64,000 nucleotides of DNA, from assembly GCF_002933465.1 (NCBI RefSeq), contig NZ_PSZE01000001.1, forward strand, positions 124,001-188,000, read 5' to 3'. The notes below the pieces were generated by a model. That model saw only the letters and a list, made by a program, of their open reading frames with translations. It had not been told where the DNA came from and did not search any database. Position 1 is the first letter of the stretch. Each line of letters starts with the position of its first letter. This document shows, piece after piece, positions 871-21,298 of this stretch. The stretch comes from Nocardia nova (GTDB lineage: Bacteria; Actinomycetota; Actinomycetes; Mycobacteriales; Mycobacteriaceae). Both the position numbers and the translations under genes were made by a program.

Positions 871-3800
871 CCGGGTAGTCCTGCGACAGCTTCGCGATAT
901 CGGCGGCTTCCAGGCGGACCAGCTCGAAGTCGGACACGGTGAAACCGCCGGCGTCGGCATGGGTTCCGTGCTCGGCGAGGCCGCCCAGCGCCCGCACCCA
1001 CAGTCCGGCGAACTCCTTCACCTGATCGACGGTGAAAACGGCTGCCGCGTAATCGAATCGCGCCAGCAGTCCGTCCTCGGTGGCGTCGACGGTGATGTCG
1101 AGCAGCAGGTCGGCCGCGGGCAGGTGCGGATATGGCCGGGCCGGACGCAGATCGCGGTAGCGGAACGCGGTGCGGCCCTGCGGGGCCGCGGCCAGCGCGG
1201 GCGCGGTGTCGGCGTTGAGATACCGCAGCAGACCGAAGCCGACACCCGAATCAGGCACCCCGCGCCGCAATTCCTTGATCTGCGCGATCGCGTCGCCCGC
1301 GGCCCGGTTACCGAGCAACGCCTGCTCGACATCGATACCGGTGAGGCCGACCAGCAGCGGATAGGTCGAGGTGAAACCACCGACCGTACCGGCGGATTCG
1401 GCGCCGGCGACCGCGCGGCCGTCGGCCGCCAACTGCACCACGGTGCCGATCAGATCACCGGCATCGGCACGGGCGCCCCGCTCCTGCGCGAGCGCGAACG
1501 CGGTGAGCAGCACATCCTCGATGGAGGCGTGATAGGCGTGCGCGACCGCGTCCACGGCGGCCGCGCCCTCGGCGGTGATGACCAGCGAGACCCGGCCGCG
1601 CGCCGTCAGATCGATGCCCTCGACCGGCGCATCGGCGGGTGCGCAGGCGAGATGACGCTGCCACCAGTCGAGTTGCGCCACGGTCTCCGCCGCTACGGCA
1701 CTCGCCGCGAGCGCGCGACCGACGCCCAGCGGACCGGCATCGACGGCCGCGGGCGCGGAATGTCCGCCCGCCCACGACTCCGACAGCTCGTCGACGACGA
1801 TGCGCCACGAGGTGTCGTCCACCACCAGACCGTGGGCGGCCACGACCAGACTCGTTGCGGCGCCCGAGGATTCACCCGGTTCGGTGGGCGCGATCAGCGC
1901 GAAGGCGATGGTGCGCCCGGCGGCCGGATCGAGCTCGCGCCCCAGCGATCGCACCGCCAGGTCGACGGCGTCGGGCCCGGGCCCGAACTGCCGCAGGATG
2001 GCCGGGGCCGGAGTTTCCGGAATCACCAGGGCGCCGGCCTCGACATCCAGGTGAGCCGACAGGATGGCATGCCGTTCGAGCACCCCGGTCACCGCCGCAC
2101 GGATCCGCTCGGGATCGCGGTCGGCCGGAATATCGAGGGCGATCGCTCGGAGTTCGCGCCCGGAGGGGTCGAGTTCCAGCGCGCGACTCGCGGCCGGCGG
2201 CAACGGCATCGGCCCGGACTGCTCGGCGGCGGCCGGCGCCTCGACGGTGGCCGCGCGGGCCAGCGCCTCGACCGTGCGCGCGGTGAACACATCGCGCGGG
2301 GTGAAGTGCACGCCGCGGGCCCGCGCCCGGGACACGACCTGGATGGAGACGATGCTGTCGCCACCGAGGGCGAAGAAGTCGTCGTCCACACCGACCCGAT
2401 CGACGCCCAGGACCTCGCCGATCACCTCGGCGACCACCTGTTCGGTGGCGGTCTGCGGTGCGCGGTAGCGCTTGGCCTCCAGGACCGGTTCCGGCAGGGC
2501 CTTACGATCGAGTTTGCCGACCGGGGTCAGCGGAATCTCGTCCAGGACCACGATCGCGGTCGGAACCATGTACTCCGGCAGCCGCGCGGCGAGTTCGGCG
2601 GTCAGCGCCTCGGTATCGGGCGGCACACCGGCGGCCGAACGCACATACGAGACGAGGATCGTCGTGCCCGTGGCGGTGCGATGCCCCACGGTGACCGCGA
2701 AGTCGACACCGGGCTGATCCATCAGCGCACTGTCGATCTCGCCCAGTTCGATACGCAGACCGCGGATCTTGACCTGGAAGTCGTTGCGGCCCACATATTC
2801 CACCACCGGCTCGCCGCGGCGCCAGCGCACCACGTCGCCGGTGCGGTAGAGCCGCTGCCCGGGCGGGCCGTACGGATCGGCGACGAACCGGGCGGCGGTG
2901 AGGCCGGGCCGGTCGTGGTAACCGCGGGCCAGCTGGATGCCGCCCAGATACAGTTCGCCCGCGACGCCTTCGGGCACCAACCGCAGCCGCGAGTCGAGGA
3001 TCAGCGCCCGCATGCCGCGGACCGGCCCGCCGATGGTCACCACGTCGCCGGGCGAGAGCGGATCGCTGATGTTGGTCATGATCGTGGTCTCGGTGGGGCC
3101 GTATCCGTTGTGGAACCGGCGGCCCGAACCATCCGGCGCACCACCCCATTTCGCGACCAGATCGGCCGGCACGGCCTCGCCACCGGCGACGATGACCTGC
3201 ATCGAGGCCAGCGCATCCGAATCCAGCGAGGCCAGGACCGACGGGGTGAGGAAGGCGTGCGTGACCCGCTGACCGCGGATCACCTCGGCCAGTTCCGCAC
3301 CGCCGAAGGTGCGCGGCGGCACGATCACCAGCGCCCCGCACGCACCGATGGCCAGCAGCAACTCCAGCATCGAGGCGTCGAAGGACGGCGAGGCGAACGC
3401 CAGCGCCCGCGAATCGCGGTCCAGCCGGTAGCGCTCCCGCTGTTCGGCGCTGAAGTTCGCCAGACCCGCATGGGTGACCACGACGCCCTTGGGCAGACCG
3501 GTCGAACCCGAGGTGTAGATGAGGTAGGCGGTGTTGTCCGGGTGCAGCGGGGCCAGCCGTTCGGCATCGGAAACCGGTGCGCCGGACAGGGAATCGACCT
3601 CGTAGGCGAAGTTGGGGTCGTCGAGCACGATCCAGCCGCCCGCGGTATCCGGCAGGTCCGCGACCTCGGCCCGCACGGTGACTCCAAGGTCCGCGCGGCA
3701 GTCGGCGACCATGTGCGCGATGCGGTCGTACGGATAGGTCGGGTCGATCGGCACGAACGCCGCACCCGACTTGGCGACCGACCACAGCGCCACCACGCCC

Positions 3801-6800: not shown

Positions 6801-9800
6801 AGATCCAGCTCGTCGAGACGCACGACGTCCTCGCGCGCCGCGGACCGGCCCAAATCGGCCAACGCGGGCATGGATTGCGAGCGACCGCGCCAATCCCGGG
6901 TCGCGGCGCCGGCTGCCGAGGGCGCGGTACGTCCGGGCAGGTCCGGAATATCCGAGGTGGTCAGCACGCATACCGGGTCGGCGGAATCGAGGATGTAGCC
7001 GACCCGTTCGGCGGGCTGATCCGGATCGACCGGCACGTACGCGCCACCGGCCACCGAGACGGCGTACATCGCGACCACCAGATCGACGCCGCGCCGCAGA
7101 GCCAGCGCGACCCGCGATTCGGGGCCGACGCCGAGCGAGATCAGATGCCGGGCAAGGCGGTGGACGCGCTCGCCGAGTTCGCCGTAGGTGAGCTCGGCGG
7201 GCGTACCGCCGAACTGCTCGTCGGCATCGGCCGTCAGGGCCACGGCCTGCGGCCGCGCGGCGATCGTCGCCGCCAGCAGTTCCGGCAGCGTCGCGGCTAC
7301 GACCGGATGCGACGCGCCGGTCGCGGCGCGCTCCAGCTCGGCCCGCTCGGCCGAGGTCAGGATGTCGAGATCACCGACCGGGGTGCCGGCCTCGGCGACC
7401 ACACCGGCCAGCAGCAGCGACAGCCGCTCGACGATCGATTCGGCGGTCGCGGCGTCGAACAGGTCCGTGGCGTAGGTGAGGAAACCACCGATGCCGTCCG
7501 GATTTCCGTCCGCGTCGTACGCGTCGGCCACGATCAGATGCAGGTCGAACTGCGAGACGTCCAGATCGGCGTCCACACCGGCGACGCTCAATCCGGGCAG
7601 TTCCAGTTCGGTGCGCGCCACATTCTGGAACGACAGGCCCACCTGGAACAGCGGGTGATGTGCGGTGGAACGCGGCGGGTTCAGCACCTCGACCAGCCGC
7701 TCGAACGGAATGTCGGCGTGGGCGAAGGCCTGCAGATCGGTTTCGCGCTGGCGGGCCAGCAGTTCGGTGAACGGCTCGCCGCGCTCCACACGGGTCCGGA
7801 AGACGACGGTGTTGACGAACATGCCGATCAGATCGTCGAGTTCGGCCTCACCGCGCCCGGCGACCGGGCTGCCGACGGCGATGTCGTCGCCGCCCGACAA
7901 CCGGGCCAGCAGCAGCGCGAACGCCGAATGCACGACCATGAACAGCGTGGCGCCGTGAGCGCGGGCCAAGTCGACCAGGCCCGCGTGCACCTCGCGCTCG
8001 ATCCGCACGTCCACGCGCGCACCGGCCAGCGTCGCCACCGGCGGACGGGGACGATCGGTGGGCAGCTCCAGCACGTCCGGCAGGCCGGCCAGCTCGCGCT
8101 GCCAGTACGAAATCTGCTGGGCCGCAATGGAATCCGACTGCGATTCCGAGCCCAGTACGGCACGCTGCCAGAGCGCGTAATCGGCGTACTGCACGCGCAG
8201 CGGCGCCCAGTCCGGCGCCGCGCCGGAGGTGCGGGCGGCATAGGCGGTCATCACATCGCGCACCAGCGGGCCCATCGAGGACGCGTCGGCGGCGATGTGG
8301 TGCACTACCACGGCGAGCACGTATTCGCGTCGCGAACCGGGGGCGAGGTCGGAGATCTCCAACAGCCGCACCCGCAGCGGAACCTCGGAGGTGACATCGA
8401 AAGGCGTTGCGGCCAGGGCATATACCGCATCGGCGACCGCGGCGCCGGCGGTGCGTTCGGGGCGCAGGCCCAGCCGGGTATCGGCCGGCAGGATCACCTG
8501 CACGGGCCCCTCGGGGGTCTCCGGGTAGACGGTGCGCAAGACCTCGTGTCGCGTGACCACGTCGTCGAGGGCCGCGCCCAGCGCCTCCACATCCAGGCTG
8601 CCGGTCAGCCGCAGCGCGAAGGGCAGGTTGTAGGCCGCCGAACCGGAATGCACCGCCTCCTCGGCGGTCTCGGCCTGGTCGAAGCGGTTGAGGAACCACA
8701 TGCGCTGCTGCGCCAGCGAGAGCGGCAGCTGTTGCGGGCGCTCGATCGAACCCAGTTCCACGCCGCGCCGAACGTGGGTTTGGGAATCGAGGGTGGCGGC
8801 CAGTCCGGCCACCGTGGGCGTCTCGAACAGCGACCGCACCGGCACGCGGCCGCCGACCGCCGCACCGAGCCGGGCCACCACCTGCGTGGCGATCAGCGAA
8901 TTGCCGCCGAGGGCGAAGAAGTCGTCTTCGGCGCCGACCCGTTCCAGTCCGAGCACGGAGCCGAAGACCTCGGCGACGATCTCCTCCACCGGAGTACTCG
9001 GCGCCCGGAATTCCCGGCTGCTGAAGGTGGGTTCGGGCAGCGCCTTGCGGTCGAGTTTGCCGCTGGGATTGAGCGGGAAGGCGTCGAGAACCACGACGAC
9101 CGCCGGAACCATATAGGCCGGAAGCGAATCCTTCACGCCGTTGCGCAGGCGCTCGGGGTCGAGAGTGGTGCGTGGCTGGGCGACGACGTAGGCGACCAGC
9201 TGATCGCCCAGTGCCGAGCCCGTCACCAGCGCCACCGCCTGGCTCACACCGGGCAGCGCCAGCAGCGCCGTCTCGATCTCACCCAGTTCGATGCGCTGGC
9301 CGCGGAACTTCACCTGGAAGTCGGTGCGGCCGATGTAGTCGAGCCGGGCGGGCCGGGTCTCGTCGGCGTCGCGCCACAGCACCAGATCGCCGGTGCGGTA
9401 CATCCGCTCGCCGTGGCCGAACGGGTTGGCCACGAACCGGTCCGCGGTCAGGTCGGGGCGGCGCACGTAGCCGCGGGCCAGCTGATCACCCGCGAGATAC
9501 AGCTCACCGGGCACGCCCACCGGCACGGGACGCAGGCGGCCGTCGAGCACGTAGACGCGAGTGTTCCACTGCGGCAGGCCGATCGGCACGGTCGGCCGGT
9601 CGTCCTCGCCGACCGGCCAATACGTGACCGACACCGCGGCCTCGGTGGGCCCGTACAGGTTGTGGATGCGCGCATCACACACCGCGTGCACGGCATCGGC
9701 GGTCTCCGGCGGCAGCGCCTCGCCGATCACGAAGATGTCCTGCAGGGTCGGGCAGCTACCCGCCGCGATGTGCGCGGCGAAGACGGTGAGCATCGACGGG

Positions 9801-12800
9801 ACGAAGTCGGTGACCGTAACCCCGTGCGCGGCAATGGTTTCCGCGACGTACAGCGGATCGCGATGGCCGTCGTGGGTGGCCACGACCAGCTCCGCACCCG
9901 CCCGCAGCGGCATGAAATAGCCCCACAGCGAGACGTCGAAGGTGGTCGCTGTCTTCTGCAGATAGACGTCGCCGCTGCCCAGCGGATAGGCGGCCAGCAT
10001 CCACTCGATCTGGTTGTTGATCGCGGCATGCGAGACCGCGACGCCCTTGGGCCGGCCGGTGGAGCCGGAGGTGAAGATGACGTAGGCCGGATGATCTGGC
10101 CGCACCGGCGCGAGCAGTTCACCCGGCCGGATCGGGCGCGGATCGAAGCCGCCGAGATCCATGGTGTCCAGCCGCAGCACCGGAATCCGCGCGGGCACCG
10201 CGACCGTATCGGCGACGGTGGTCACGACGCAGACGGGCTGTGCGGTATCGAGGATGTGCGCGATGCGGTCCGCCGGATGATCGGGATCCAGCGGCACGTA
10301 CGCACCCCCGGCCGCCACGATCGCGTACATGCCGACCACCAGATCCAGCGATCGCCGGATCGCCAGGCCGACCAGGGCATCCGGGCCGACACCACGCGAA
10401 ATCAGCAGACGCGCCAGCTGATTGACCTGCGCGTCGAATTCGGCGTAGGTCAGCCGCGCACCCTCGTAGGTGACCGCCACCGCGTCCGGATTGCGCAGCG
10501 CCGCCCGGCGGTAGCCGTCGAGCAGCAGTTCCGGTTCGACCCGGTGGGCGGTGTCGTTCCAGTCCCGCAGGATGCGCAGGCGCTCGGCCGGGTCGAGCAG
10601 CTCGATATCGCCCACGGCAGCCGCCGGATCGGCGACGATACCCTCCAGCACCCGCACCAGCCGGTCGGCGTAGGTGGCCACGGTCGGCTCGTCGAACAGA
10701 TCCAGCGCGTAGGTGAACATCGCCGATACGCCGGCCGGGGCACCCGCCTCTACTCGCGGTACGGCGGTGAGCTGCAGATCGAATTTCGCCACCGCGCCGT
10801 CGAATTCGACCGTTTCGGCGACCAGTCCGGGCAGCCGCAGCTGCGGCTTCTGCATGTTCTGGAAGAACAGCGCGGCCTGGAACAGCGGATGATGCGCCTG
10901 CGATCGCACCGGGTCGAGCACCTCGACCAAGCGCTCGAACGGCAGCTCGGCATGCGAGAAGGCGCCCAGATCGGTGTCCTTCACCGCCGCGAGCAGCTGT
11001 TCGACCGTCGTCGCGGCGTCGATGCGGGTCCGCAGCACCAGGGTGTTGACGAACATGCCGACCAGAGCGTCGAGTTCGGCCTCACCGCGCCCGGCCACCG
11101 GGGTGCCGATGGTGATGTCGTCGGTGCCGCTGGAGCGGGCCAGCAGGATCGCGAACGCCGCATGCACCACCATGAACAGCGAGGTGCCGGTGCGCTGGGC
11201 GAGTTCCTCGAGCCGGGCGTGCAGTTCGGGCGCGATGTCGAAGATGTATTCCGCGCCGCGCCCCGAGGCGATCTGCGGGCGCGGCCGATCCGCGGGCAGA
11301 TCCAGCCGGTCCGGAATGCCGGCCAGGGTGGTGCGCCAGTAGTCGATCTGCTGGGCCGCGAGGGAATCGGGATCATGTTCGTCGCCGAGCAGCGCTCGCT
11401 GCCACAGCGCGTAGTCGGCGTACTGCACCGGCAGCGGCTGCCAGCTCGGCCGGGCGCTGTTGCGCCGGGCGAGGAACGCGGCCAGCAGATCGCGCGTGAA
11501 CGGCGCCACCGAGGCGCCGTCGGCGGCGATGTGGTGGACCACGACCGCCACGACGTGATCGTCGGGCGCCAGTTCGGCCACCGCGATGCGCAGCGGCACC
11601 TCGGCGGCCACATCGAATCCGGCGAGCAGATATCCGGCCAGCCACTGCGGCAGTTCGTCCTCGGTCACCGGCTTCGGCGCCAGATCCGGAACCGATTGCG
11701 CCGCAGGCAGAATCACCTGGTGTCCGGCGCCGTCGGCGGACGGGTAGACGGTACGCAGCGTTTCGTGGCGCTCGATGACGTCGGCGACGGCCGCCTGCAG
11801 CGCCTCCACGTTCAGCGCGCCGGTGAGCCGGATCGCGAACGGAATGTTGTTGGCCGCCGATTCCGGATCGAACTGGTTGAGGAACCACATCCGCTGCTGG
11901 GCCAGCGAGAGCGGAATGCGTTCCGGACGCGGCATCGGCGCCAGCGCCAGGCGCCCGCCCGCACCCTTCAGCGGTTCCAGCCGCTGCGCCAATTCGGCGA
12001 CCGTGGCCGCCTCGAACAGCAGCCGGGCCGGTACCCGCGCCGAGATCTGGGCGCCGAGGCGGCCCGCGACCTGAGTGGCGATCAGCGAGTTTCCGCCCAG
12101 TTCGAAGAAGTCGTCGTCGGCGCCGACCGGCCCCGGCGGGTCGAGCAGATCGGTGAAGACGGCCGCCACCATCTCCTCGAGCGCACCCGAGGGCGCGCGG
12201 AATTCGCGGGCGGCCAGGACAGGTTCCGGCAGCGCCGCGCGGTCCAGTTTGCCGACCGGGGTCAACGGAATCGCGTCCAGGACCATGATCGTCGTCGGCA
12301 CCATATGGGCCGGAAGACTCTGTCCCGCATGCTCGCTCAGCTCGTCGGTGTCGACCTTCGCACCATCGGCGGCGTGCACGTACGACACCAGAATCGTCGC
12401 GCCGCTGTGCAGGGTGTGGCCGACGGTGACGGCGAAGTCGACCGAATCGTGGGCGGCCAGTACCGCGTCGATCTCGCCGAGCTCGATCCGGAAGCCACGG
12501 ATCTTGACCTGGAAGTCGTTGCGGCCCAGATACTCCAATTCACCAGCGGCCGTCCAGCGCACCAGGTCGCCGGTCCGGTACAGCCGTGAACCGTTGGCGT
12601 CGAAGGGGTTGGCGACGAAGCGGGCCGCGGTCAGGCCGGGGCGCAGGTGGTAGCCGCGCGCCAGTTGCGCACCGGTGATGTACAACTCGCCGACCGCGCC
12701 GCGCGGCACCCGCGCGAGGTGTTCGTCGAGCACGTATTCGGTGATGCCGCGCACCGGCGCGCCGATGGTGACCGTCTCCCCCGGCACCAGCGGCGCGCTG

Positions 12801-13783
12801 ATGTTGGTCATGATCGTGGTCTCGGTCGGACCGTACCCGTTGTAGAACTCGCGGGTGCCGCCCTCGATCGCGATCGCCCAGCGCCGCACCAATTCCGGCG
12901 GGCAGGCCTCACCACCTGCGACCACGACGCGCAGGTCGTCCAGTCCGGCCGGATCCACCGAGGCCAGGGCCGCGGGCGTGATGAAGGCGTGGGTGACCCG
13001 TTCGCGCCGTAGCAGATTCGCCAATTCGTCGCCGCCGAGTACCGACGGGGAGGCCACCACCATGGCGGCCGCACCGCCGATGGCCAGCAGCAGTTCCAGC
13101 ACCGAGGCATCGAACGAGGGCGATGCGAAATGCAGGGTGCGCGAATCGTTTCCGACCCGATACCGCTCGCGCTGTTCGTCACAGAAACTCGACAGCCCGG
13201 CCTGGGTGACCACGACACCCTTCGGCTTGCCGGTCGAGCCGGACGTGTAGATCACATAGGCCGGATGTTCGGCCCGCAACGGCCGCAACCGATCGGCATA
13301 GGTGACCGGATCGCCGGAGAACTCCTCGAGCCGCGCGGCGAAATCACCGGCGTCGACGGTCAGCCACTCCACCGAATCGGGCAAATCCCCCCGCACCGGC
13401 GATACCGTGAGGCCCAGTTTCGCACCGGAGTCGGAGACCATGTGCGCGACGCGATCGGCCGGATAGTTCGGATCCACCGGCACGAAGCCGGCGCCGGTCT
13501 TGGCGACCGCCCACACCGCGACCACCGATTCCACCGACCGGGGAATACCGACGGCGACCAGATCCTCCGGGCCGATGCCGCGGGCGATGAGCAGCCGGGC
13601 CAGCCGGGTCGAACGCTCGTCGAGCTCGGCGTAGCCGAGTTCGACCAGCGTGGTGGTGGCATCGGCGAACACCAGGGCCGTACCGGTCGGATCCGCCTCG
13701 ACCGCGGTGGCCATCAGCTGGGGCAGGGTGGTGACGCGTGGCCGGCGGGTGCGTGTCGGCCGGACCCGAGCGGGGCGCGTCAT
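2..13783 (-). CDS. Non-ribosomal peptide synthetase NRPS-2 (A-T-C-A-T-C-A-T-C-A-T-E*-C..., continues off the left edge)
   Basis: The reading frame is open for 4594 codons from the ATG at 13783 to the window edge with no stop. Residues 10-510 form an A domain (YTSGSTGKPKG, NGYGPTE, YRTGD, final PVGKLDR) and a carrier site GGNSL lies near 565. C-A-T modules follow with carrier serines near residues 1630 (GGNSL) and 2750 (GGNSL). The fourth carrier near 3806 reads GGDSI, the form that precedes epimerisation domains. An E-like domain (about 3855-4220) and a DCL-type C domain (PVTPLQSGMLFHAL, then HHILIDG near 4445) come next. Residues at the ten A-domain specificity positions read DALFVGGIMK, DVWDFILVSK, DLWHLILVSK and DALFVGGIMK, so modules 1 and 4 probably load the same amino acid; I cannot name it. 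The third C domain has HHIAADA, with Ala for the usual Gly. The start lies 153 bp after NRPS-1, so the two genes are probably one operon. Confidence 0.95.
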   Translation of the reverse strand, partial: MTRPARVRPTRTRRPRVTTLPQLMATAVEADPTGTALVFADATTTLVELGYAELDERSTRLARLLIARGIGPEDLVAVGIPRSVESVVAVWAVAKTGAGFVPVDPNYPADRVAHMVSDSGAKLGLTVSPVRGDLPDSVEWLTVDAGDFAARLEEFSGDPVTYADRLRPLRAEHPAYVIYTSGSTGKPKGVVVTQAGLSSFCDEQRERYRVGNDSRTLHFASPSFDASVLELLLAIGGAAAMVVASPSVLGGDELANLLRRERVTHAFITPAALASVDPAGLDDLRVVVAGGEACPPELVRRWAIAIEGGTREFYNGYGPTETTIMTNISAPLVPGETVTIGAPVRGITEYVLDEHLARVPRGAVGELYITGAQLARGYHLRPGLTAARFVANPFDANGSRLYRTGDLVRWTAAGELEYLGRNDFQVKIRGFRIELGEIDAVLAAHDSVDFAVTVGHTLHSGATILVSYVHAADGAKVDTDELSEHAGQSLPAHMVPTTIMVLDAIPLTPVGKLDRAALPEPVLAAREFRAPSGALEEMVAAVFTDLLDPPGPVGADDDFFELGGNSLIATQVAGRLGAQISARVPARLLFEAATVAELAQRLEPLKGAGGRLALAPMPRPERIPLSLAQQRMWFLNQFDPESAANNIPFAIRLTGALNVEALQAAVADVIERHETLRTVYPSADGAGHQVILPAAQSVPDLAPKPVTEDELPQWLAGYLLAGFDVAAEVPLRIAVAELAPDDHVVAVVVHHIAADGASVAPFTRDLLAAFLARRNSARPSWQPLPVQYADYALWQRALLGDEHDPDSLAAQQIDYWRTTLAGIPDRLDLPADRPRPQIASGRGAEYIFDIAPELHARLEELAQRTGTSLFMVVHAAFAILLARSSGTDDITIGTPVAGRGEAELDALVGMFVNTLVLRTRIDAATTVEQLLAAVKDTDLGAFSHAELPFERLVEVLDPVRSQAHHPLFQAALFFQNMQKPQLRLPGLVAETVEFDGAVAKFDLQLTAVPRVEAGAPAGVSAMFTYALDLFDEPTVATYADRLVRVLEGIVADPAAAVGDIELLDPAERLRILRDWNDTAHRVEPELLLDGYRRAALRNPDAVAVTYEGARLTYAEFDAQVNQLARLLISRGVGPDALVGLAIRRSLDLVVGMYAIVAAGGAYVPLDPDHPADRIAHILDTAQPVCVVTTVADTVAVPARIPVLRLDTMDLGGFDPRPIRPGELLAPVRPDHPAYVIFTSGSTGRPKGVAVSHAAINNQIEWMLAAYPLGSGDVYLQKTATTFDVSLWGYFMPLRAGAELVVATHDGHRDPLYVAETIAAHGVTVTDFVPSMLTVFAAHIAAGSCPTLQDIFVIGEALPPETADAVHAVCDARIHNLYGPTEAAVSVTYWPVGEDDRPTVPIGLPQWNTRVYVLDGRLRPVPVGVPGELYLAGDQLARGYVRRPDLTADRFVANPFGHGERMYRTGDLVLWRDADETRPARLDYIGRTDFQVKFRGQRIELGEIETALLALPGVSQAVALVTGSALGDQLVAYVVAQPRTTLDPERLRNGVKDSLPAYMVPAVVVVLDAFPLNPSGKLDRKALPEPTFSSREFRAPSTPVEEIVAEVFGSVLGLERVGAEDDFFALGGNSLIATQVVARLGAAVGGRVPVRSLFETPTVAGLAATLDSQTHVRRGVELGSIERPQQLPLSLAQQRMWFLNRFDQAETAEEAVHSGSAAYNLPFALRLTGSLDVEALGAALDDVVTRHEVLRTVYPETPEGPVQVILPADTRLGLRPERTAGAAVADAVYALAATPFDVTSEVPLRVRLLEISDLAPGSRREYVLAVVVHHIAADASSMGPLVRDVMTAYAARTSGAAPDWAPLRVQYADYALWQRAVLGSESQSDSIAAQQISYWQRELAGLPDVLELPTDRPRPPVATLAGARVDVRIEREVHAGLVDLARAHGATLFMVVHSAFALLLARLSGGDDIAVGSPVAGRGEAELDDLIGMFVNTVVFRTRVERGEPFTELLARQRETDLQAFAHADIPFERLVEVLNPPRSTAHHPLFQVGLSFQNVARTELELPGLSVAGVDADLDVSQFDLHLIVADAYDADGNPDGIGGFLTYATDLFDAATAESIVERLSLLLAGVVAEAGTPVGDLDILTSAERAELERAATGASHPVVAATLPELLAATIAARPQAVALTADADEQFGGTPAELTYGELGERVHRLARHLISLGVGPESRVALALRRGVDLVVAMYAVSVAGGAYVPVDPDQPAERVGYILDSADPVCVLTTSDIPDLPGRTAPSAAGAATRDWRGRSQSMPALADLGRSAAREDVVRLDELDLSGLSARPVTEADRIAPLLPQHTAYVIFTSGSTGRPKGVAVPHGAIVNQLVWKTAEFGLGADDAVLLKTAATFDLSVWEFWSAAVSGGRLVIAAPDGHRDPAYLNDLIRRTGVTTLHVVPSMLDALLTEARTNAAPQAASPLRRVLAIGEALPAALAQRFAAAHPEVELYNLYGPTEAAVSITAHRVGAADELSVPIGAPEWNSSVYVLDSRLHPVAVGVSGELYLAGAQLARGYFGRADLTADRFVADPFGGGSRMYRTGDVVARTANGELEYRGRTDFQVKVRGFRIELGEIEAALLRLPQLAQAVVVAKSDPRTGDRLVAYLVSADRELDVAQVKSALASALPNYMVPAAFVVLDALPLTVNGKLDRKALPEPEFETTAFRAPSTPVEEIVAGTFAEVLGIDRVGLDDDFFALGGNSLLATQVAARIGAALEVRVPVRALFEAATVGALAARVERTGTERPRLPLVAGPRPDAVPLSYAQQRMWFLNQFDTAATVYNIPVAIRLSGALDVAALRQAVADLVARHEVLRTIYPEAESGGAVQQVLAPGAVSIDLEPVPIGEERVAHEVGHQVASGFDVTTEIPFRIRLFQLAASEFVLVFVAHHIAADGWSMGPLTRDLMTAYVARAGGQAPSWAPLPIQYADYALWQRAALGAEDDPESLVSAQLSYWTTELADLPDELRLPADRPRPAVQSFAGAKVDFAVDSQVHAGLTALAQRHNSTVFMVVHTALAVFLARMSGTEDIAIGAPIAGRGEAELDDLIGMFVNTLVLRSRVTPGRSFAELLADNRETDLRAFAHADVPFERLVEALDPERSTARHPLFQVALSFENLAGTSFELPGLSFTALDPAADTAKFDLLLTLREQRTGSGGEAGIFGEFTYATDLFDRDTVIDFGRRLGRILAAVARDADIAVGDLDILVGSEAEDLAARTGLPAVAPATLPDLMAAAVATNPDGPAVVVGGRAFTYAQLDLASTKLARRLIELGAGPDKHVAVAIPRSLEGVVALWSVAKSGAAFVPIDPTYPYDRIAHMVADCRADLGVTVRAEVADLPDTAGGWIVLDDPNFAYEVDSLSGAPVSDAERLAPLHPDNTAYLIYTSGSTGLPKGVVVTHAGLANFSAEQRERYRLDRDSRALAFASPSFDASMLELLLAIGACGALVIVPPRTFGGAELAEVIRGQRVTHAFLTPSVLASLDSDALASMQVIVAGGEAVPADLVAKWGGAPDGSGRRFHNGYGPTETTIMTNISDPLSPGDVVTIGGPVRGMRALILDSRLRLVPEGVAGELYLGGIQLARGYHDRPGLTAARFVADPYGPPGQRLYRTGDVVRWRRGEPVVEYVGRNDFQVKIRGLRIELGEIDSALMDQPGVDFAVTVGHRTATGTTILVSYVRSAAGVPPDTEALTAELAARLPEYMVPTAIVVLDEIPLTPVGKLDRKALPEPVLEAKRYRAPQTATEQVVAEVIGEVLGVDRVGVDDDFFALGGDSIVSIQVVSRARARGVHFTPRDVFTARTVEALARAATVEAPAAAEQSGPMPLPPAASRALELDPSGRELRAIALDIPADRDPERIRAAVTGVLERHAILSAHLDVEAGALVIPETPAPAILRQFGPGPDAVDLAVRSLGRELDPAAGRTIAFALIAPTEPGESSGAATSLVVAAHGLVVDDTSWRIVVDELSESWAGGHSAPAAVDAGPLGVGRALAASAVAAETVAQLDWWQRHLACAPADAPVEGIDLTARGRVSLVITAEGAAAVDAVAHAYHASIEDVLLTAFALAQERGARADAGDLIGTVVQLAADGRAVAGAESAGTVGGFTSTYPLLVGLTGIDVEQALLGNRAAGDAIAQIKELRRGVPDSGVGFGLLRYLNADTAPALAAAPQGRTAFRYRDLRPARPYPHLPAADLLLDITVDATEDGLLARFDYAAAVFTVDQVKEFAGLWVRALGGLAEHGTHADAGGFTVSDFELVRLEAADIAKLSQDYPDLADVWPVTPLQSGMLFHALLADTSTDVYITQFTLDLGGAVDERRLRVAAQAVLDRHDNLRVAFAADATGNPVQVVLDRVEVPWRSIDLTHLTPEAAEAEAVRMCELDYGRRFAMDRAPLLRFTLFRLAADAYRLLVTSHHILIDGWSTPLLMQDLLTLYAVGARSRQLPAAGSYGDYLRWLIAQDPAAARAQWQRALDGITEPTPLAPVDPSREISAGVGEIGFELSVADTTELTRLAARLGVTVNTVVQAAWGLLIGRSIDRDDVVFGATVSGRPPALPGVETMVGLF
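1120..2220 (-). other. Degenerate epimerisation domain (E*) of NRPS-2
   Basis: The order of the segments fits an E domain. The region of the HHxxxDG motif reads AAHGLVVDDTSWRI, so the second (catalytic) His is Gly. The EGHGRE-like segment reads LAADGRA, with the catalytic Glu replaced by Ala. The later TVGGFTSTYP and VPDSGVGFGLLRYL segments are still recognisable, and the FNYLG segment is replaced by FRYRDL. Epimerisation needs the His and Glu as acid and base, so the domain is probably catalytically dead but still folded. The reading frame is fully open, so this is not simple decay by frameshift. Confidence 0.8.
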
Positions 13784-13936
13784 GCCGTCACTTCCAGCGC
13801 GTACTGTCCGCTGACCACCCGTACCACCTATCTCATCCTGCCTGTCATCACCGCATGCGCCCGCACGCAGGCCACCCTTGTCCATCGATTCCGGCCGCGG
13901 CGGGCGTTACTTTCCCGCGATCGTGCCACCGGTTGC
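13784..13936. other. Gap between NRPS-1 and NRPS-2
   Basis: These 153 bp separate the stop of NRPS-1 from the ATG of NRPS-2. I see no gene, no clear terminator and no clear promoter. The gap is too short to hold the missing half of the adenylation domain that ends NRPS-1. Confidence 0.6.
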
Positions 13937-16900
13937 TCAACGAAGCACATTGTCCTGCAGCACTACCAGCTCGGCCGAACCGAAGGCGGCCGGCGCCGGC
14001 GCGTCCTCGAGCACCACGGCCCGCAGGTCTTCCAGCGGTTCCGGATCCAGCAGGTCCAGACCGGCGCGATCGGTGAACAGGTGGGTGACCCATTCGTCGG
14101 CGAGCCCGTCGGTGCCGACCTCGGCCGGCAACACCATCGACGCACCGGTCGTCCCCGCGCCGACCACCTCGAGCAGCGCGGCGACACCGTCGGCCCGGCC
14201 CTGCCGGAAGGTGCGAGATTCGAAGTCCAGCTCGGTACGAGCCCGCAACCGGTCGACCGCGGCGGCCAGCGCGTCGTAACTGTGGATGCCGTCCGCGCCG
14301 ACGAAGGCCGGATCGGCGCCGCGCAACGCCCGGGTGCGGTTGGCGTAGGTCACCGGCCGCGCCGACTCACCCGCGATTTCGGCGGCGACCGCCGCGTCGT
14401 CGAGGACCAACCAGTCGATACCGTTCGGCCCCGCCTTCGGCCGGGCCGCCGCCACGGTGACTCCGGTCTTGATCTCCAGCTCCGACGGCAGCTCCCCACC
14501 GTCGACGACCGGGACCAGCGCGGCACCGGCCTTGAGCACCGCCCAGGCCGCGACCGCCGACTCGATACCACGCTCGAGCCGGACCGCGACCCCGCTACCC
14601 GGACCGCAACCGCGACCGATCAGAGCCCGGGCCAACCGGGAGGAGCGGGCGTCGAGCTCCTGATACGAGACCGCCTCCTCGCCCCAGGCCAGGGCCGGAC
14701 CCTCGGGATCGTCCTCGACGGCGGCGGCCAGCGCCTGCGCCAGCGCGGTGCCGACGGTGGAGCCGGTCGCAGCCGGGTCGGTGCGGGCCGACTCGACCAC
14801 CACCTCCGACTCGTCGTGCAGGTCGATCGCGCCGAGCAGGATCTGCGGATCGGCGGCCACTGCCGCGAGGATGCGCTCGAATCGATCACCCAGCGCGCGC
14901 ATCGTCGCCGGATCGAACAGGTCCCGCGCGTAGGTGAAGATCGTGACCAGCTCCGCCGGTGAGCCGTCGGATTCGTGGCGCGGCTCGACCGTGACCTGCA
15001 GATCGAACTTCGCCGCCACGGCATCGGTGTCGAGTGCGGCGATGGTCAGGCCCGGCAGTTCCAGCGTCGGCTGCTGGGTGTTCTGGAACGACAGCACCAC
15101 CGTGAACAGGCTCTGCGCGCCACCGCGTCCCGGGGCCACGACCTCGGCGACCCGTTCGAACGGGATATCGGAGTTAGCGAAGGCCGCCAGATCGGTGTCG
15201 CGGGCGGTTTCCACCAGCGCGTCGAAGGTGTCGGCGGTGTCGACACCGGTGCGCAGCGTCAGCGTGTTGACGAACATGCCGACCAGATCGTCGAGCGCGC
15301 GCTCGCCGCGGCCCGCGATCGGCGTGCCGACCACCACATCGGCGGTGCCGGACTGCCGGGCCAGCAGCACCGCGAGCGCGGCGTGCACCACCATGAACAG
15401 CGACGAATTATGTTCGCGCGCAATCCGGACCAGCCCCTCGTGCACCGCGGCCGGGATCGCGAAACCGATCGATTCGCCGCGCATCGACGGCGCGGCCGGA
15501 CGCGGATGATCGGGCGTCAGCAGCGGCGTACCGGACACCCCGGCGAGCCGATCCCGCCAGTAGGCGAGCTGCTTGGCCGCCACCGAATCCGGATCGTCGT
15601 CGGTGCCGATGGCCCGGCGCTGCCAGATCGCGAAATCGGCGTACTGGACTTCCAATGGCGCCCAGCCTGGTTCGCGGCCGCCGGTGCGGGCCACATAAGC
15701 GGTCATCAGATCGCGAGCGAGCGGCGCCATCGAGGAACCGTCGCCGGCGATGTGGTGGATCACCAGTGCCAGCACCTGGTCGGAACCGTTGCGCAGCAGC
15801 AGGGCGCGCACCGGAACCTGTTGAGTCACATCGAATCCGGTCGCCATGAGCGCGGCGATCCGGTCGACCGGCTCGGCGGTGTCCTCGACCGGCAGGCCCT
15901 CCGGCAGCGCCTCGCGGACCGAGAGTATCTCCTGATACGGCAGCCCGCCCGGACCGCCGGCCGGATAGCGGGTGCGCAGCACCTCGTGCCGCTCCACCAC
16001 GTCGGCGACGGCCTGACGCAACGCGTCCGCATCGAGATCGCCGGTGAGCCGGATCGCCAGCGGAATGTTGTAGGCCGGTGATTGCGGATCGAGCTGGTTG
16101 ATCACCCACATCCGCTGCTGGGCCGGCGACAGCGGAATCCGCTCCCCGCGCGCGGCCGGTTCCAGGCGCGGGCGCACCGCACCGGCGGCCGCACCGGGCA
16201 CGATCCGCGCCGCGAGCGCCGCCACGGTCGAGGCCTCGAACAGCTCCCGGACCACGAGGTTCGCGTCGAGCGCCGCGTTGATGCGAGCCACCGCACGGGT
16301 CGCGAGCAGCGAATTGCCACCGAGAGCGAAGAAGTCGTCATCGAGGCCTACACCGGTCGTCTCCGCCCCGGCGACACCGAGCAGGTCGGCGAACACATCG
16401 GCGACGGTCTGTTCGATCGGCGTACTCGGCGCCCGGAAGGCGGCCGCGCTGACGACCGCCGGTTCGGGCAGCGCGCGACGATCGAGTTTTCCGTTCGGCG
16501 TCAGCGGCAGCGCGTCGAGCACGACCACCACGTTGGGCACCATGTAGCCGGTCAGGAAGGCGCCGACCTCGGCGCGCAGCGCGATCGGATCGAGCGGCGA
16601 ACCCGCCTCGGGCACAACGTAACCCACCAGCCGCTCACCGGAATGCTCACCGGTGCGGACCATCGCCACCGCCTGCGCGACACCGGTGCAGCGCAGCAGC
16701 GCGGCCTCGATTTCGCCGAGTTCGATGCGGAAGCCACGCAGCTGCACCTGCTGATCGCTGCGGCCGGCGTATTCCAGCGCGGCCTCGCCGTCGAAGCCGG
16801 CCCAGCGGCCGATATCGCCCGAGCGGTACATCCGGGAACCGGGCGCACCGTACGGATTGGCCACGAACCGCGCCGCGGTCAAGCCCGGACGGCCGAGATA

Positions 16901-19900
16901 ACCGCGCGAAAGTTGTTGTCCGGCAATGTACATCTCGCCAGCCACGCCGACCGGCGCCGGATGCAGCCGGTCGTCGAGCACATAGGTCTCCAGGCCCGGC
17001 AGCGCCCGGCCGATAACGCTGGCCGGATGGTCGGCCAGGCCCTCGTCCAGCGCCAGGAACGACACGTGCACGGTCGTCTCGGTGATGCCGTACATGTTCA
17101 CCAGCTGCGGCGCGGTGGAGCCGTGCCGTTCGTACCAGCGCGCGAGCTGCCGCAGATCCAGCGCCTCACCGCCGAAGACGATGTAGCGCAACGCGAATTT
17201 GGCCGCGACCGTCACCGCGGCGTCGCCGGTGTGGCTGTGCGCCGCGCGGTCGGCCTCGGCGAGTTGATAGAACGCCGAGGGCGTCTGGTTCAGCACGGTG
17301 ACCTGTTCGCGAATCAGCAACTCGCGGAACAGCTCCGGCGATCGCGAGGTGAGGTGATCGACCACCACGACCGCACCGCCGTTGGCCAGCGAACACCACA
17401 GTTCCCAGACCGAGAAGTCGAAGGCGAAGGAGTGGAACAGCGTCCACACGTCGGTTTCGTCGAAGTCGAACAGCAGCTGGGTGTTGGCGAACAGTTCCAG
17501 CACGTTGCGGTGAGTGACGCCCACCCCCTTGGGCACGCCGGTAGAGCCCGAGGTGTAGATGACGTAGGCCAGATCGGCCGGTCGCAGCGGGGCGAGCCGC
17601 TCGGCGTCGGTGATCCGGCCGCCGGCGAAGTTGCCGGTCTCCTCCAGCAGCACCGTCGCCAGGCCAGCGGCGGGCACCGCCTCGCGCAGCTCGGCGGTCG
17701 TGAGCACACACGCCGGCGCGGCGTCGCCGAGCATGAATTCCAGCCGCTGTACCGGATATCCGGTGTCGATGGGCAGATAGGCGGCGCCGGCGAGCAGCAC
17801 GCCGAGCAGCGCGACCGGCAGTTCCTCGGTGCGCGGCACCGCCACCGCCACCAGCGATTCCGGCCCGACGCCCTGGACGATCAGCGCGCGGGCCACCCGG
17901 CTCGCACGCTCGTGCAGATCACCGAAGGTGAGCGTGGTGTCACCGAAGCGGACCGCCACCGCACCCGGCCGGCGCCGGACCTGCGCGGTGATCAGATCCA
18001 CCAGGGTCACCGGCGGCACCGGCGCACCGGGCGAATTCCATTCGTGCAGAACGAGTTCGCGCTCACCGGGGGCCAGCACATCGATATCGCCCACCACGGC
18101 CGCGGCGTCGGCGGCGACGGCATTCAGGATGCGCGTGAACCGATCGGTGAAATCGCGCACCGTCGCCTCGTCGAAGAGGTCGGTGGCGTAGCTGAAGGCG
18201 GCCGAAATGCCCTGCGGCACACCGTGCTCGTCGATCCGCTCGGCCATCGCCAGCTGCAGATCGAACTTGGCCAGTTCGATGTCGAGGTCGACACCGGAAA
18301 CCGCCAGCCCGGGCAGCTCCAATTCGGTGCGGGCCAGGTTCTGGAAGGTCAGCATCACCTGGAACAGCGGATGCCGCCCGGCCGAACGCGCCGGATCCAG
18401 GATCTCGACCAGCCGCTCGAACGGCACGTCGGCGTGGCCGAACGCCGCCACGTCGGTGCCGCGGACATCGGCCAGTACCTGTTCGAAACTGCGCGCCGGG
18501 TCGATCTCGGTGCGCAGCACCAGGGTGTTGACGAACATGCCGATCAGCTCGTCGAGCGCCGCCTCACCGCGCCCCGCGACCGGGGTGCCGATCGCGATGT
18601 CGCGGGTGCCCGACAGCCGGGCCAGCAGCACCGCGAGCGCGGCGTGCACGACCATGAACAACGTCGAATGATGTTCGTGCGCAAGGCGGTTCAGCGCCGC
18701 GTGCACATCCGGGGCGATCTCGAAGTCGAGCGTGGCGCCCCGATAGGACGCGACCGCCGGACGCGGCCGATCGGCCGGCAGGTCCAGTTGTTCGGGCAGA
18801 GCGGCGAGTTCACGGCGCCAGAAGTCGATCTGCGCGGCGAGCACCGACTCCGGATCGTCCTCGCGGCCCAGCGTTTCCCGTTGCCACAGGGCGTAATCGG
18901 CGTACTGGACGGCAAGGGGCGTCCATTCCGGACGACCGCCGCGCACCCGATCGAGGTAGGCGGTCATCAGATCGCGGGTCAGCGGCCCCATCGAGAAGCC
19001 GTCACCGGCGATGTGGTGCACCACGCACACCAGGACGTGCTCGGTCTCGCTGGCGCGGAGCACCCGCAGGCGCACCGGCGGCGCGGCCGTCACATCGAAG
19101 CCGCCCGAGACGGTCTCGGCAACCAGGGCGGCCACCTCGTCCTCGCCCGCTTCGACCAGGGGAATCTCGGGTATCGCCCGGGGATCCGAGACGGGCAGCA
19201 CCCGCTGGTAGCCCTCACCGTCGAGTTCCGGATAGATGGTGCGCAACACTTCGTGGCGCTCCACCAGATCGCGCACCGCGGACCGCAGCGCGTCCACGTC
19301 GAGGCGTCCGCTCAGCCGCACCGCGACCGGGATGTTGTTGACGGCCCCCGCCGGGTCGAAGCGGTTGAGAAACCACATCCGCTGCTGCGCGTAGGACAGC
19401 GGGATGCGTTCGGGCCGCGGCATCGGCCGCAGCCGCTCGCCGGTGTCGGTTCCGGCGTGCCGTTCCACCTGTTCGGCCAGTGCGGCCACGGTCGATGCCT
19501 CGAACAACAGCTGCACCGGCACCCGGGCGCCCAGGGCCGAGCCGATCCGGGCCGCCGCCTGCGCGGCCAGCAGGGAATTGCCGCCGAGTTCGAAGAAGTC
19601 GTCGTCGGCGCCCACCCGGCCGGGATTGTCACCCTCGCCGGGGACGAGCAGAGCCGCGAACACCTCGGCGACGATCTCCTCCACCGGGGTGGCGGGAGCA
19701 CGGAATTCGCGTGCCGCGAAGGTCGGTTCCGGCAGCCGGGCGCGGTCGAGTTTGCCGACCGGCGTCAGCGGAATCTCGTCCAGCGACATGATCGCCGCGG
19801 GAATCATGTAGGCGGGCAACGAGTCCGCCAGGAAATCGTCGAGGGTCGCGATATCGAGCGCCGCACCGGGACGCGGCAGCACGTACGACACCAGCGCCGT

Positions 19901-21298
19901 CGCGCCGGAAGGCAACGCGCGGCCGATGGTGGCGGCGAAATCGATATCCGGATGCGCGGTCAGCGCGTTGTCGATCTCGCCCAGTTCGATGCGGAAGCCG
20001 CGAATCTTGACCTGGAAATCGGAGCGGCCCAGATATTCGATGGTGCCGTCGGATTCGTTGCGGCGCACCAGGTCACCGGTGCGGTACAGCCGGGCCCCGG
20101 ACCTGCCGGTTTCGGCGCCGAAGGGACTGGCCACGAACCGTTCCGCGGTGAGCCCCGGGCGGCCCAGATATCCCTGCGCCAGCGCCGGGCCCGCCAGATA
20201 CAACTCGCCGACCACCCCGGCCGGCACCGGTCGCAGCCGCGAATCCAGCACGAACGCGCCGACCCCGGCGATCGGGGTGCCGATCGTGATCGGCTCGCCG
20301 GCAATCATTTCCGCGCTGGAGGTGGCGAGGATCGTCGCCTCGGTCGGGCCGTAGCCGTTGTAGAAGCGCCGCCCGTCGCGCGCCCAGCGACCCACCAACT
20401 CCGGGCCGAACTTGTCGCCGGCCACGACGACGGCCTCGAGGTCGGGCAGTCCGGCCGGATCGACCGATTCCAGCGCGCCCGGGGTGATCAGCATGTGCGA
20501 AACCTGTTCGCGGCGCAGCAGATCGGCCAGCTCGAAACCGCCGAACACCTCCGGCGGCGAGACCACCAAGGTCGCACCCGACGAGAAGGTCAGCAGCAGT
20601 TCCAGGACGGAGACGTCGAAATTCGGCGAACAGACGTGCAGGACACGGGAATCCTCGGTCACGCCGTAGTGCTCGCGCTCGGCCGCGACCAGACCGCCGA
20701 GTCCGGCATGGGTCACCACGACGCCCTTGGGACGCCCGGTGGAGCCCGAGGTGTAGATCACGTAGGCCGGGTGATCCTCGGTGAGCGGGCGGACCCGGTC
20801 GGTGTAGGAGATCGGATGCGCGGGGCGCGCGCCGATTCGCTCCGAGGCGGCCGGATCGTCGAGTTCGAGCCAGTACACACCCGTCCCCAGCGCCCGGCGA
20901 TGGGCTCCGGTGGTCAGGCCGAGGACCGCGCCGGAGTCGGCGACGATATGCGCGATGCGCTCGGGCGGATAGGCCGGGTCGACCGGAACGTAGGCCGCGC
21001 CCGCCTTGGCGACCGCCCAGATCGCGAGGACGGATTCGATCGAGCGGGCGATGCCGATAGCCACCACGTCGCCGGCGCCGATGCCGTGGGAGATGAGTTC
21101 GCGGGCCAGGCACGACGATCCCTCGTCGAGCTCTCGATAGGTCAGCTGCCGCGCGTCGGCCGGATCGTCGGTCGGCGCGTACCGGATCGCCACCGCATCG
21201 GCGGCGGACTCGACCGCGGCGGTCAGCAGCTGGCCGAAAAGGGGGCTGCCCGACCTGCGGCGACGACCTCCACGAGCGGAACGGCGGGCAGTATCCAT
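13937..21298 (-). CDS. Non-ribosomal peptide synthetase NRPS-1 (A-T-C-A(Thr)-T-C-A*)
   Basis: The protein has 2453 residues from an ATG at 21298 that follows an AGAGGTGA ribosome site; an open TTG lies further upstream. The N terminus is arginine-rich, as in NRPS-2. Order: A1 (about 20-520, [18 protein letters not shown]), carrier GGNSL near 570, C domain (HHIAGDG near 763), A2 (1100-1615), carrier GGNSL near 1660, C domain (HHIAGDG near 1850) and a C-terminal A remnant (2185-2453). A2 reads DFWNVGMVHK at the specificity positions, one conservative change from the canonical L-threonine code, so it very likely loads Thr. A1 reads roughly D-V-L-L-V-A/G-G-I-L-K, which I cannot assign. There is no C domain before A1, so this is probably the initiating protein. 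The LuxR-like gene lies directly upstream in the same direction. Confidence 0.95.
13940..14750 (-). other. Shrunken, loop-less adenylation domain (A*) at the C terminus of NRPS-1
   Basis: The segment begins like a normal A domain ([19 protein letters not shown]) and follows the A-domain core for about 270 residues. Where [13 protein letters not shown] should be, it has only [13 protein letters not shown]. The specificity region survives as an alignable but altered stretch, and the NGYGPTE, YRTGD and final lysine parts are absent. There is no carrier domain after it. It cannot activate an amino acid. The next protein starts with a complete A domain, so A* may be a structural or docking element, or a relic of a fused module. 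Confidence 0.85.

What the first reader, a model, noticed from the sequence alone, without database searches (positions are those of the whole stretch)
13783..14750. Synthetase split by a loop-less adenylation remnant: A* ends NRPS-1 and a full A starts NRPS-2
NRPS-1 ends C-A* with no carrier, and NRPS-2 starts directly with a complete A-T. A* has lost its ATP-binding loop and everything after the specificity region, but the remaining core is alignable and open. A C domain on one protein thus has to use the A-T of another. A* may have become a docking domain that pairs with the next A domain or C domain. I know of no established docking class of this kind.
Basis: partly seen in the sequence, partly recalled or inferred. 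Interest (0 to 1): 0.72.

Follow-up and report, generated by a model that had tools for sequence, protein, structure and literature searches.

The report
Broken enzyme half joins peptide synthetases
In Nocardia, Rhodococcus and their relatives, giant peptide-making enzymes that are cut into separate proteins end in a dead half of an amino-acid-activating domain, and the next protein usually starts with a complete copy behind a positively charged tail, which looks like a previously undescribed plug and socket for joining such proteins.

Summary
NRPS-1 (window 13937-21298, -) is A-T-C-A-T-C-A*; A* lacks motifs A3-A10, the P-loop included. NRPS-2 starts at 13783 with an intact A-T and ends, outside the window, in a thioesterase. 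It is neither an error nor a local oddity. A* matches occur in 141 of 150 genus genomes and in 9 of 31 sampled genera of the family; of 113 distinct A* ends with an adjacent same-strand NRPS gene, 113 are followed by an A-first gene. A* forms one clade (SH-aLRT 100), resembles the A domain that starts the next protein more than internal A domains, is under purifying selection (dN/dS 0.12-0.20) and is predicted to fold. I also found an Arg-rich tail before the acceptor A domain (147 of 156 A-first proteins, 3 of 338 internal A domains); A* itself is unusually acidic. Acceptors form two clades that mostly match A* types; a giant synthetase on another contig ends in the A* type that fits NRPS-1's own N-terminus. 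Best reading: a docking pair at a C|A split inside a module, absent from the docking review section I read. Binding is inferred, not shown; AlphaFold did not fix the geometry; some acceptors and donors lack a visible partner.

The parts
13937..21298 (-). NRPS-1, 2453 aa, A-T-C-A-T-C-A*
21245..21298 (-). Arg-rich N-terminal tail of NRPS-1 ([18 protein letters not shown]), class I acceptor tail
   Evidence: near-identical tails in other Nocardia NRPS-1 homologues
20009..21238 (-). NRPS-1 first A domain, class I acceptor (start A); no NRPS gene upstream of it in the window
   Evidence: class by its homologues in the tree (this row itself was not in the tree)
14816..16165 (-). last C domain of NRPS-1 (approximate limits), co-inherited with class II A*
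13940..14743 (-). A*: loop-less N-terminal half of an adenylation domain (motifs A3-A10 lost), proposed C-terminal docking domain
13784..13936 (-). gap between the NRPS-1 stop and the NRPS-2 start codon
13727..13783 (-). Arg/Pro-rich N-terminal tail of NRPS-2 (MTRPARVRPTRTRRPRVTT), class II acceptor tail
12548..13726 (-). NRPS-2 first A domain core, complete by motifs A2-A10 (A8-A10 lie just beyond this core), best full-length match of A* within the two proteins
11984..12205 (-). NRPS-2 first T domain, the carrier that the NRPS-1 C domain must use (approximate limits)
   Evidence: (GGNSL motif)
2..13783 (-). NRPS-2, part inside the window; open frame 5660 aa in the genome contig (about 5626 aa from this ATG), ending in a thioesterase

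Best explanation
A* is a C-terminal docking domain made from a dead half adenylation domain. The last C domain of NRPS-1 needs the amino acid loaded on the first T domain of NRPS-2. A* (the first, Rossmann-like part of an A core, without nucleotide loop, barrel or Asub) recognises the N-terminal end of NRPS-2: the homologous half of its first A domain plus the Arg/Pro-rich tail in front of it, which would meet the acidic A*. Docking rebuilds a C/A-T module from two proteins. Two acceptor classes exist, with A* types that mostly match (class I: giant synthetase to NRPS-1; class II: NRPS-1 to NRPS-2). Shown: architecture, recurrence, descent, selection, tail, charge, partial class matching. Inferred: binding, which faces touch, specificity, and that the giant on another contig feeds NRPS-1.
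For: (1) Recurrence: A* query matches in 141 of 150 genus genomes at E<=1e-40 and in 88 of 401 family genomes, 9 of 31 genera, at E<=1e-38; at least one opened locus in each of the 9 genera shows a truncated A end (in g24 the internally deleted form). Named hosts Nocardia, Rhodococcus, Prescottella, Antrihabitans, Aldersonia. (2) Pairing: of 113 distinct A*-ended NRPS with an adjacent same-strand NRPS gene, 113 are followed by an A-first gene, 0 by a C-first gene. (3) Descent: an A* profile scores A* 276-470 bits, first A domains 185-255, internal A 49-246 (medians 431, 227, 110); in the tree 54 of 54 A* rows are one clade, and 33 of 34 first A domains share a starred clade with 1 internal A. 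(4) Selection: A* dN/dS 0.12-0.20 against 0.08-0.16 for the C domain before it. (5) Acceptor tail: Arg cluster in 87 of 88 first A against 0 of 144 internal A; over all loci 147 of 156 against 3 of 338. A* net charge -7.7 per 100 aa against -4.1 (first A) and -3.8 (internal A). (6) Five of the nine A-first proteins outside the tail pattern lack a typical A* upstream (L164, L206 none; L099, L270, L279 atypical); the other four have basic tails of another spelling. (7) Types by best match: 96 II|II, 8 I|I, 7 I|II, 2 II|I (Fisher p 5e-7, not corrected for relatedness). (8) In N. pneumoniae, N. amamiensis and G180 the acceptor keeps the tail and the A N-half but has lost its own P-loop, and a new full A follows it: docking part kept, catalysis replaced. 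(9) A* is predicted to fold well (pLDDT mostly 85-98).
Against: No binding data. AlphaFold leaves the tail disordered and does not fix C against A* (pTM 0.58 for C-A*; 0.61 for the tethered C-A*~A chain); C-A* and C-A match solved C-A modules only at rmsd 22-23 and 18-20 A. Nine Arg-tailed A-first genes follow an end with a T domain and no A* (seven of TE-like length). Of the 16 genus genomes without a strong class I A*, 12 were checked and all 12 still carry a class I-like acceptor (60-65% identity). Class I A* are not one clade: they are several basal branches outside the class II group (84), and two tandem NRPS-1 copies put a class II A* beside a class I acceptor. The C-half of A* is less constrained (dN/dS 0.29-0.33). 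Same-operon inheritance can mimic class matching.
Confidence: 0.73

Rival explanations
1. A* is only a vestige: an ancient gene split duplicated an A domain, and the C-terminal copy decays slowly because it does no harm.
For: Graded forms exist: a full-length loop-less core (L279), an internally deleted core (L099, L270) and the half core (Nocardia, Rhodococcus); the C-half is less constrained.
Against: Retained in frame over many genera, dN/dS 0.12-0.20, A*-specific conserved positions, an A-first acceptor at 113 of 113 adjacent junctions, high predicted order.
Confidence: 0.13
2. The Arg/Pro tail alone docks (to the C domain or to A*), and A* mainly serves as a structural cap that keeps the last C domain soluble and shaped in the absence of its own A domain.
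For: The tail is the sharpest acceptor signature; class II A* follows its own C clade (40 of 41 A*-preceding C rows of that kind, the clade also holding one C of a mislabelled A* end).
Against: A* is closest to the acceptor type of A domain, A* attaches to two different C types, and acceptors that lost catalysis still keep the A N-half. AlphaFold does not pack A* on C with confidence.
Confidence: 0.16
3. A* and the next protein together make one split but working A domain, as in corallorazine.
For: A split A domain that works across two proteins is published (PMC11342130, abstract and passages).
Against: NRPS-2 A1 has motifs A2-A10 while A* lacks A3 to A10; nothing is left for A* to complement.
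Confidence: 0.03
4. A* binds another factor (for example an MbtH-like protein) or regulates the line, rather than joining subunits.
For: MbtH-like proteins activate A domains (PMC3537567 passages).
Against: Does not explain why A* sits at C-terminal ends before A-first genes, nor the Arg tail of those genes.
Confidence: 0.05
5. Sequencing or assembly artefact, or a gene broken in this strain only.
For: None found.
Against: Same frame and stop in N. elegans, N. nova and N. africana, conserved in the genus.
Confidence: 0.005

Closest known systems
COM docking domains of NRPSs
   Same: Matched C-terminal and N-terminal elements that order NRPS subunits.
   Different: Reported at E/C junctions: a short helix and a hand built into the next C domain (PMC9113145 section 11). 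Here the junction is C|A inside a module and the donor is a half A domain.
PAX three-helix docking domains
   Same: Charged contacts help specificity; separate N- and C-terminal partners.
   Different: Small helices at a PCP/C junction; here a folded pseudo-enzyme of about 270 aa and an Arg/Pro tail predicted to be disordered.
Beta-hairpin (betaHD/SLiM) docking domains
   Same: One partner is a short charged tail.
   Different: Beta-hairpin on the acceptor, short linear motif on the donor (review passages; detail partly recalled); here the tail is on the acceptor and no hairpin is evident.
Split adenylation domain of corallorazine (Crz1/Crz2)
   Same: A-domain material lies on both sides of a subunit break.
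   Different: There the smaller A subdomain lies on the second protein and both parts are needed for activity (PMC11342130 abstract and passages); here one side is a complete A domain and the other a dead duplicate.
Inactive A domain served in trans by an A-T protein (albicidin, ramoplanin, enduracidin)
   Same: A C domain uses an amino acid activated on another protein.
   Different: There a stand-alone A-T protein serves a dead A within the line (PMC8949500 passages); here A* is the protein's last domain and the acceptor is a whole downstream synthetase.

Membership tests
Docking domain pair (general kind) | Located at the C-terminus of one subunit and the N-terminus of the next | tested here: met
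   113 of 113 adjacent junctions; orphan A* ends also exist
Docking domain pair (general kind) | Matched, co-diverging partner types | tested here: inconclusive
   96 II|II, 8 I|I, 7 I|II, 2 II|I; class I A* not one clade; shared operon inheritance is not controlled for
Docking domain pair (general kind) | Partners bind each other | not testable with these tools
   no binding data; tethered AlphaFold model pTM 0.61 is not decisive
COM docking domain | E/C junction; next subunit starts with a C domain that carries the hand | tested here: not met
   next subunit starts with A in 113 of 113
PAX docking domain | PCP/C junction | tested here: not met
   junction is C-A*|A
PAX docking domain | Three-helix bundle of short helices | not tested
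   no complex structure
Beta-hairpin docking domain | N-terminal beta-hairpin domain on the acceptor, short C-terminal motif on the donor | tested here: inconclusive
   acceptor tail has low confidence and no strand in the model; donor ends in a folded half domain
Active adenylation domain | Core motifs A3-A10 | tested here: not met
   none found in A* by pattern or alignment
AMP-binding (Pfam PF00501) family by descent | Sequence similarity above the family cut-off | tested here: met
   58.4 bits, cut-off 29.9, profile 3-77
Split working A domain (corallorazine type) | Neither part complete; together one A domain | tested here: not met
   NRPS-2 A1 has motifs A2-A10 by pattern

The most novel reading that the evidence does not exclude
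The half A domain, the matching A domain and the Arg tail form a shared docking code by which one giant N-terminal synthetase on another locus feeds NRPS-1, and NRPS-1 can feed more than one downstream synthetase, so that these bacteria mix subunits into several peptides. In the window's genome a synthetase with a 14,684-aa frame on contig C86 ends C-A* (not class II) with no NRPS gene in the next 13 kb, while NRPS-1 starts with a class I acceptor and has no NRPS gene upstream in the window. In genus g6 (L094-L096) the three kinds of gene lie in the order C-A* protein, NRPS-1 homologue, last subunit. In G031, G067, G046, G018 and G125 two successive downstream genes carry the same class II tail; the first ends in a thioesterase in the three tested.
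Probability: 0.37. Interest if true: 0.87.

Novelty: new variant of a known kind. Interest (0 to 1): 0.77.

Why it matters
How NRPS subunits find each other limits the engineering of peptide assembly lines. The review section I read lists few NRPS docking classes, at E/C and PCP/C junctions. A pseudo-enzyme half domain used as a plug, at a C|A break inside a module, would add a class with natural partner pairs and a simple acceptor signature that can be found by sequence. It would also explain why many Nocardia and Rhodococcus synthetases seem to end in an incomplete module, and would let genome mining join genes that lie on different loci into one line.

Tried and rejected
Rejected: artefact or single-strain break; simple one-gene split (A* is an extra domain beside a complete A); split working A domain; a simple fusion of giant and NRPS-1 in genomes whose A* ends a very long frame: their bodies differ, and the C before A*, the A* and the acceptor are the parts alike. 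Orphan counts as proof of pairing: not perfect. Nine of 150 genomes lack an NRPS-1-type A* at the threshold but have a strong giant-type A*; in four of these nine (G008, G012, G027, G147) the best class I acceptor starts a 4.8-5.6 k-aa frame, in the other five the best acceptor frame is 0.5-2.2 k aa, perhaps cut by contig ends, which I did not check. Of the 16 genomes without a strong class I A* I checked 12; all 12 have a class I-like acceptor.

Led nowhere or weak: AlphaFold geometry. From pTM arithmetic (C alone would give about 0.6 of C-A*, about 0.4 of the tethered chain; seen 0.58 and 0.61) one may guess that A* and the next A are placed together, but this is my inference and no coordinates or error maps were available. 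Order- and class-level searches found matches only in this family, but only the best few candidates per genome were scored, so other forms elsewhere are not excluded. In g29 and other genera I saw full internal A domains, a frameshifted A (L283) and, in g21 and g9, graded forms like that of g24 (L270, L279, L099). Not every family-level match was opened: 20 were (L083-L102; 19 outside the genus), and each holds an NRPS frame that ends in a truncated A by my reading. PDB search with A* gave A domains, mostly over the first 75-150 residues. Ten paper searches found no description; most subscription papers and preprints are not held, so absence is not proof.

Rows dropped before counts: tree rows were thinned for redundancy (92 A* to 54, 88 first A to 34, 144 internal A to 82 and then 30; C domains 137 and 304 to 57 and 191, then 45 and 60). 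Domain calls rest on profiles built from the window's own domains, with a loop test by pattern that mislabels some rows (for example L098, L053). E domains are inferred from weak C-profile hits. Of the 80 loci, 48 end in A* by this rule and 45 of these have an adjacent A-first gene; the other 32 are mostly full A domains or contig edges. Several of the seven I|II rows have close scores on one side; all were left in the table.
Full report
1. What is there. On the minus strand NRPS-1 (window 21298 to 13937, 2453 aa) has the order A-T-C-A-T-C-A* and NRPS-2 starts at 13783 with A-T. In the host genome (window = G000:C31:124001-188000) the NRPS-2 frame is 5660 aa and ends in a thioesterase. A* is 39% identical over 270 columns to NRPS-2's first A domain. 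The loop [14 protein letters not shown] is replaced by a short FVGADG stretch, the conserved FD of motif A4 is gone, and the chain ends just before A5. Codon-position composition is like that of the rest of the gene. Against N. elegans, N. nova and N. africana, A* has dN/dS 0.12, 0.14 and 0.20; the C domain before it 0.11, 0.16 and 0.08; NRPS-2 A1 0.10, 0.10 and 0.08. The N-half of A* is tighter (0.06-0.15) than the C-half (0.29-0.33).

2. It recurs. With A* as query, 141 of 150 genomes of the genus match at E <= 1e-40, 57 of them two or three times by my count of the table, and 88 of 401 family genomes match at E <= 1e-38, in 9 of 31 genera. Order and class samples gave 8 of 298 (E <= 1e-34) and 7 of 394 (E <= 1e-60), all in this family; some of these hits are full A domains. 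Named genomes with A* are Nocardia, Rhodococcus, Prescottella, Antrihabitans and Aldersonia. I opened 20 loci (L040-L059) and 20 more (L083-L102): where both sides are visible on one strand, A* ends one protein and the next starts with A. Among 85 distinct A* ends in loci L001-L102, 80 have such a neighbour; of the other five, two belong to orphan giants, one runs off the fetched stretch and two have an opposite-strand gene next. Of 48 named A* ends, 45 have it and 3 do not. Over all loci held, 113 distinct A* ends have an adjacent same-strand NRPS gene, and all 113 of those are A-first: 110 with the Arg-tail pattern and 3 with a basic tail of another spelling. Carrier ends followed by a C-first gene, the conventional kind, appear 3 times in the same table, all in one genome.

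3. Where A* comes from. A profile of 92 A* scores A* at 276-470 bits, the A domain that begins an NRPS protein at 185-255, and internal A domains at 49-246 (medians 431, 227, 110). In a tree of 118 thinned rows all 54 A* form one clade (SH-aLRT 100), 33 of 34 first A domains share one starred clade (95) with a single internal A, and A* and first A lie together with 5 internal A (94, drawn open). So A* is most likely an old duplicate of the acceptor type. The acceptors split into two starred clades: class I at the start of NRPS-1-like proteins, class II at the start of NRPS-2-like proteins. Among A*, those at NRPS-1-like ends form a group of 44 rows (84, class II); those after the E-C ends of giant proteins (class I) lie outside it as several basal branches, not one clade, and L090 also lies outside. 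By best match the junctions are 96 II|II, 8 I|I, 7 I|II (several with close scores) and 2 II|I; the last two are tandem copies of NRPS-1. Of 41 thinned C domains in front of A* that are not of the giant kind, 40 fall in one starred clade (with one more C whose A* end my rule mislabelled), and the 4 of the giant kind fall in another, of a different C type; L090 is the exception.

4. The acceptor tail. The start of the acceptor protein is a conserved basic tail: MTRPARVRPTRTRRPRVTTLPQL in Nocardia class II, RRERPARRxRxxxxTLPQLL in Rhodococcus and relatives, [25 protein letters not shown] in Nocardia class I. An Arg cluster is present in 87 of 88 first A domains and 0 of 144 internal A domains; over all loci in 147 of 156 and 3 of 338. 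The nine exceptions are informative: two have no A* upstream (L164, L206), three follow atypical A remnants (L099, L270, L279), and four have basic tails of another spelling (L155, L161, L302, L170). The three K-type tails go with their own A* group (85-93% identical to each other, at most 57% to others), though these three are also close relatives. A* itself is acidic: -7.7 net charges per 100 residues, against -4.1 for first and -3.8 for internal A.

5. Natural experiments. In N. pneumoniae (L137), N. amamiensis (L151) and G180 (L092) the acceptor keeps the tail and A N-half, has lost its own P-loop, and is followed directly by another complete A domain. The retained part thus seems needed for something other than adenylation. 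In G169, G172 and G157 the C-terminal A remnant is longer or differently cut and the acceptor lacks the tail, which looks like earlier or separate stages.

6. Structure. C-A* alone is predicted at pLDDT 88.2, A* itself mostly 85-98, with a disordered linker at model residues 443-459 and pTM 0.58. A tethered chain C-A*-read-through-A1 gave pLDDT 85.5 and pTM 0.61, with the linker and most of the tail below 50. Against solved C-A modules, C-A* aligns over 661-701 residues but at rmsd about 22-23 A, and C plus A1 of the tethered model at 18-20 A. A* is therefore predicted as a folded half A core; its placement on C or on the next A is not settled.

7. How it most likely works. The NRPS-1 C domain must take its acceptor substrate from NRPS-2's first T domain. 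I propose that A* binds the homologous N-half of NRPS-2 A1 and its Arg tail and so rebuilds a module from two chains. The recurrence, descent, selection and tail are shown; binding, orientation and specificity are inferred. Confidence 0.73.

8. Beyond the window. The second A* of this genome ends a giant synthetase on contig C86 (open frame 14,684 aa) with no NRPS gene in the next 13 kb. In 134 of 150 genus genomes a strong match to it is present (my reading: 140 with a match, six of them weak). In g6 (L094-L096), G304 (L097) and G198 (L100) the giant-type A* is directly followed by an NRPS-1-like gene. NRPS-1's first A domain is class I by its homologues, and the window holds no NRPS gene upstream of it, only two lone ligase-like frames. 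Among the ten matches listed for the host genome, only NRPS-1 and NRPS-2 lie at the start of a protein and carry the tail (read; the A at the edge of contig C69 has no such tail). This suggests a line giant, NRPS-1, NRPS-2 over two loci. In G031, G067, G046, G018 and G125 two successive genes carry class II tails; in the three tested (G031, G067, G125) the first ends in a thioesterase. G020 carries three class I acceptors and one strong giant A*. One donor may therefore serve several acceptors. Against this, 12 of 12 checked genomes without a strong class I A* still have a class I-like acceptor.

9. Comparison with the literature. The docking review PMC9113145 (section 11 read whole; other passages) lists COM, PAX and beta-hairpin classes for NRPSs and none built from A domains in what I read. 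Corallorazine (PMC11342130, abstract and passages) has a split but working A domain. Trans-served inactive A domains are reviewed in PMC8949500 (passages). Genome surveys of Rhodococcus and actinomycetes (PMC5550956 and PMC3848822, passages; PMC11433410, no match for the terms) and papers on mycobacterial lipopeptides (PMC11978893, PMC3537567, passages) and NRPS architecture (PMC10212144, passages) do not mention the arrangement in what I saw. Glidonin's A* (PMC10587159 passages) is a partial A that lacks its core inside a module, a different thing. The class appears undescribed in the held library by the ten searches named above; subscription papers are mostly not held.

Noticed in passing
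G000:C86:102538-146589 (L112, L103): An NRPS with a 14,684-aa open frame, a weakly matching starter-like first C domain and a C-A* end, without a following NRPS gene in 13 kb; other Nocardia A* ends without a following NRPS gene in the stretch fetched are L101/L116, L181, L187, L201 and L300.
   Followed up: partly
L137, L151, L092: Acceptor protein starts with an Arg tail and a P-loop-less A half, followed at once by a second, complete A domain.
   Followed up: partly
L164 and L206 (Rhodococcus): A C-ended frame is followed within 4-18 bases by an A-first frame without A* and without Arg tail: another C|A break or an interrupted gene.
   Followed up: no
L049 (G115:C1:4965000-4984999): An NRPS-1/NRPS-2-like gene pair in which several A, Asub and T domains score weakly or are missing, as if the line were decaying or changed.
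   Followed up: no
L052 (G090), L053 (G114): Tandem NRPS-1-like copies, the second with a class I start directly after a class II A*, before a class II acceptor gene.
   Followed up: partly
window 13784-13936: The gap before the NRPS-2 start codon is 97-98% identical between the window and three close species although it is not clearly coding.
   Followed up: no
L094-L096 (genus g6): A further Arg-tailed A-first gene follows the subunit that ends in a thioesterase (thioesterase tested in L094 only).
   Followed up: no
window 25194-27692 and 27883-29586 (-): Two lone frames with weak A-domain matches (ligase-like), the only other A-like frames in the window.
   Followed up: no
window 36907-36980: tRNA-Arg (CCT).
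   Followed up: no
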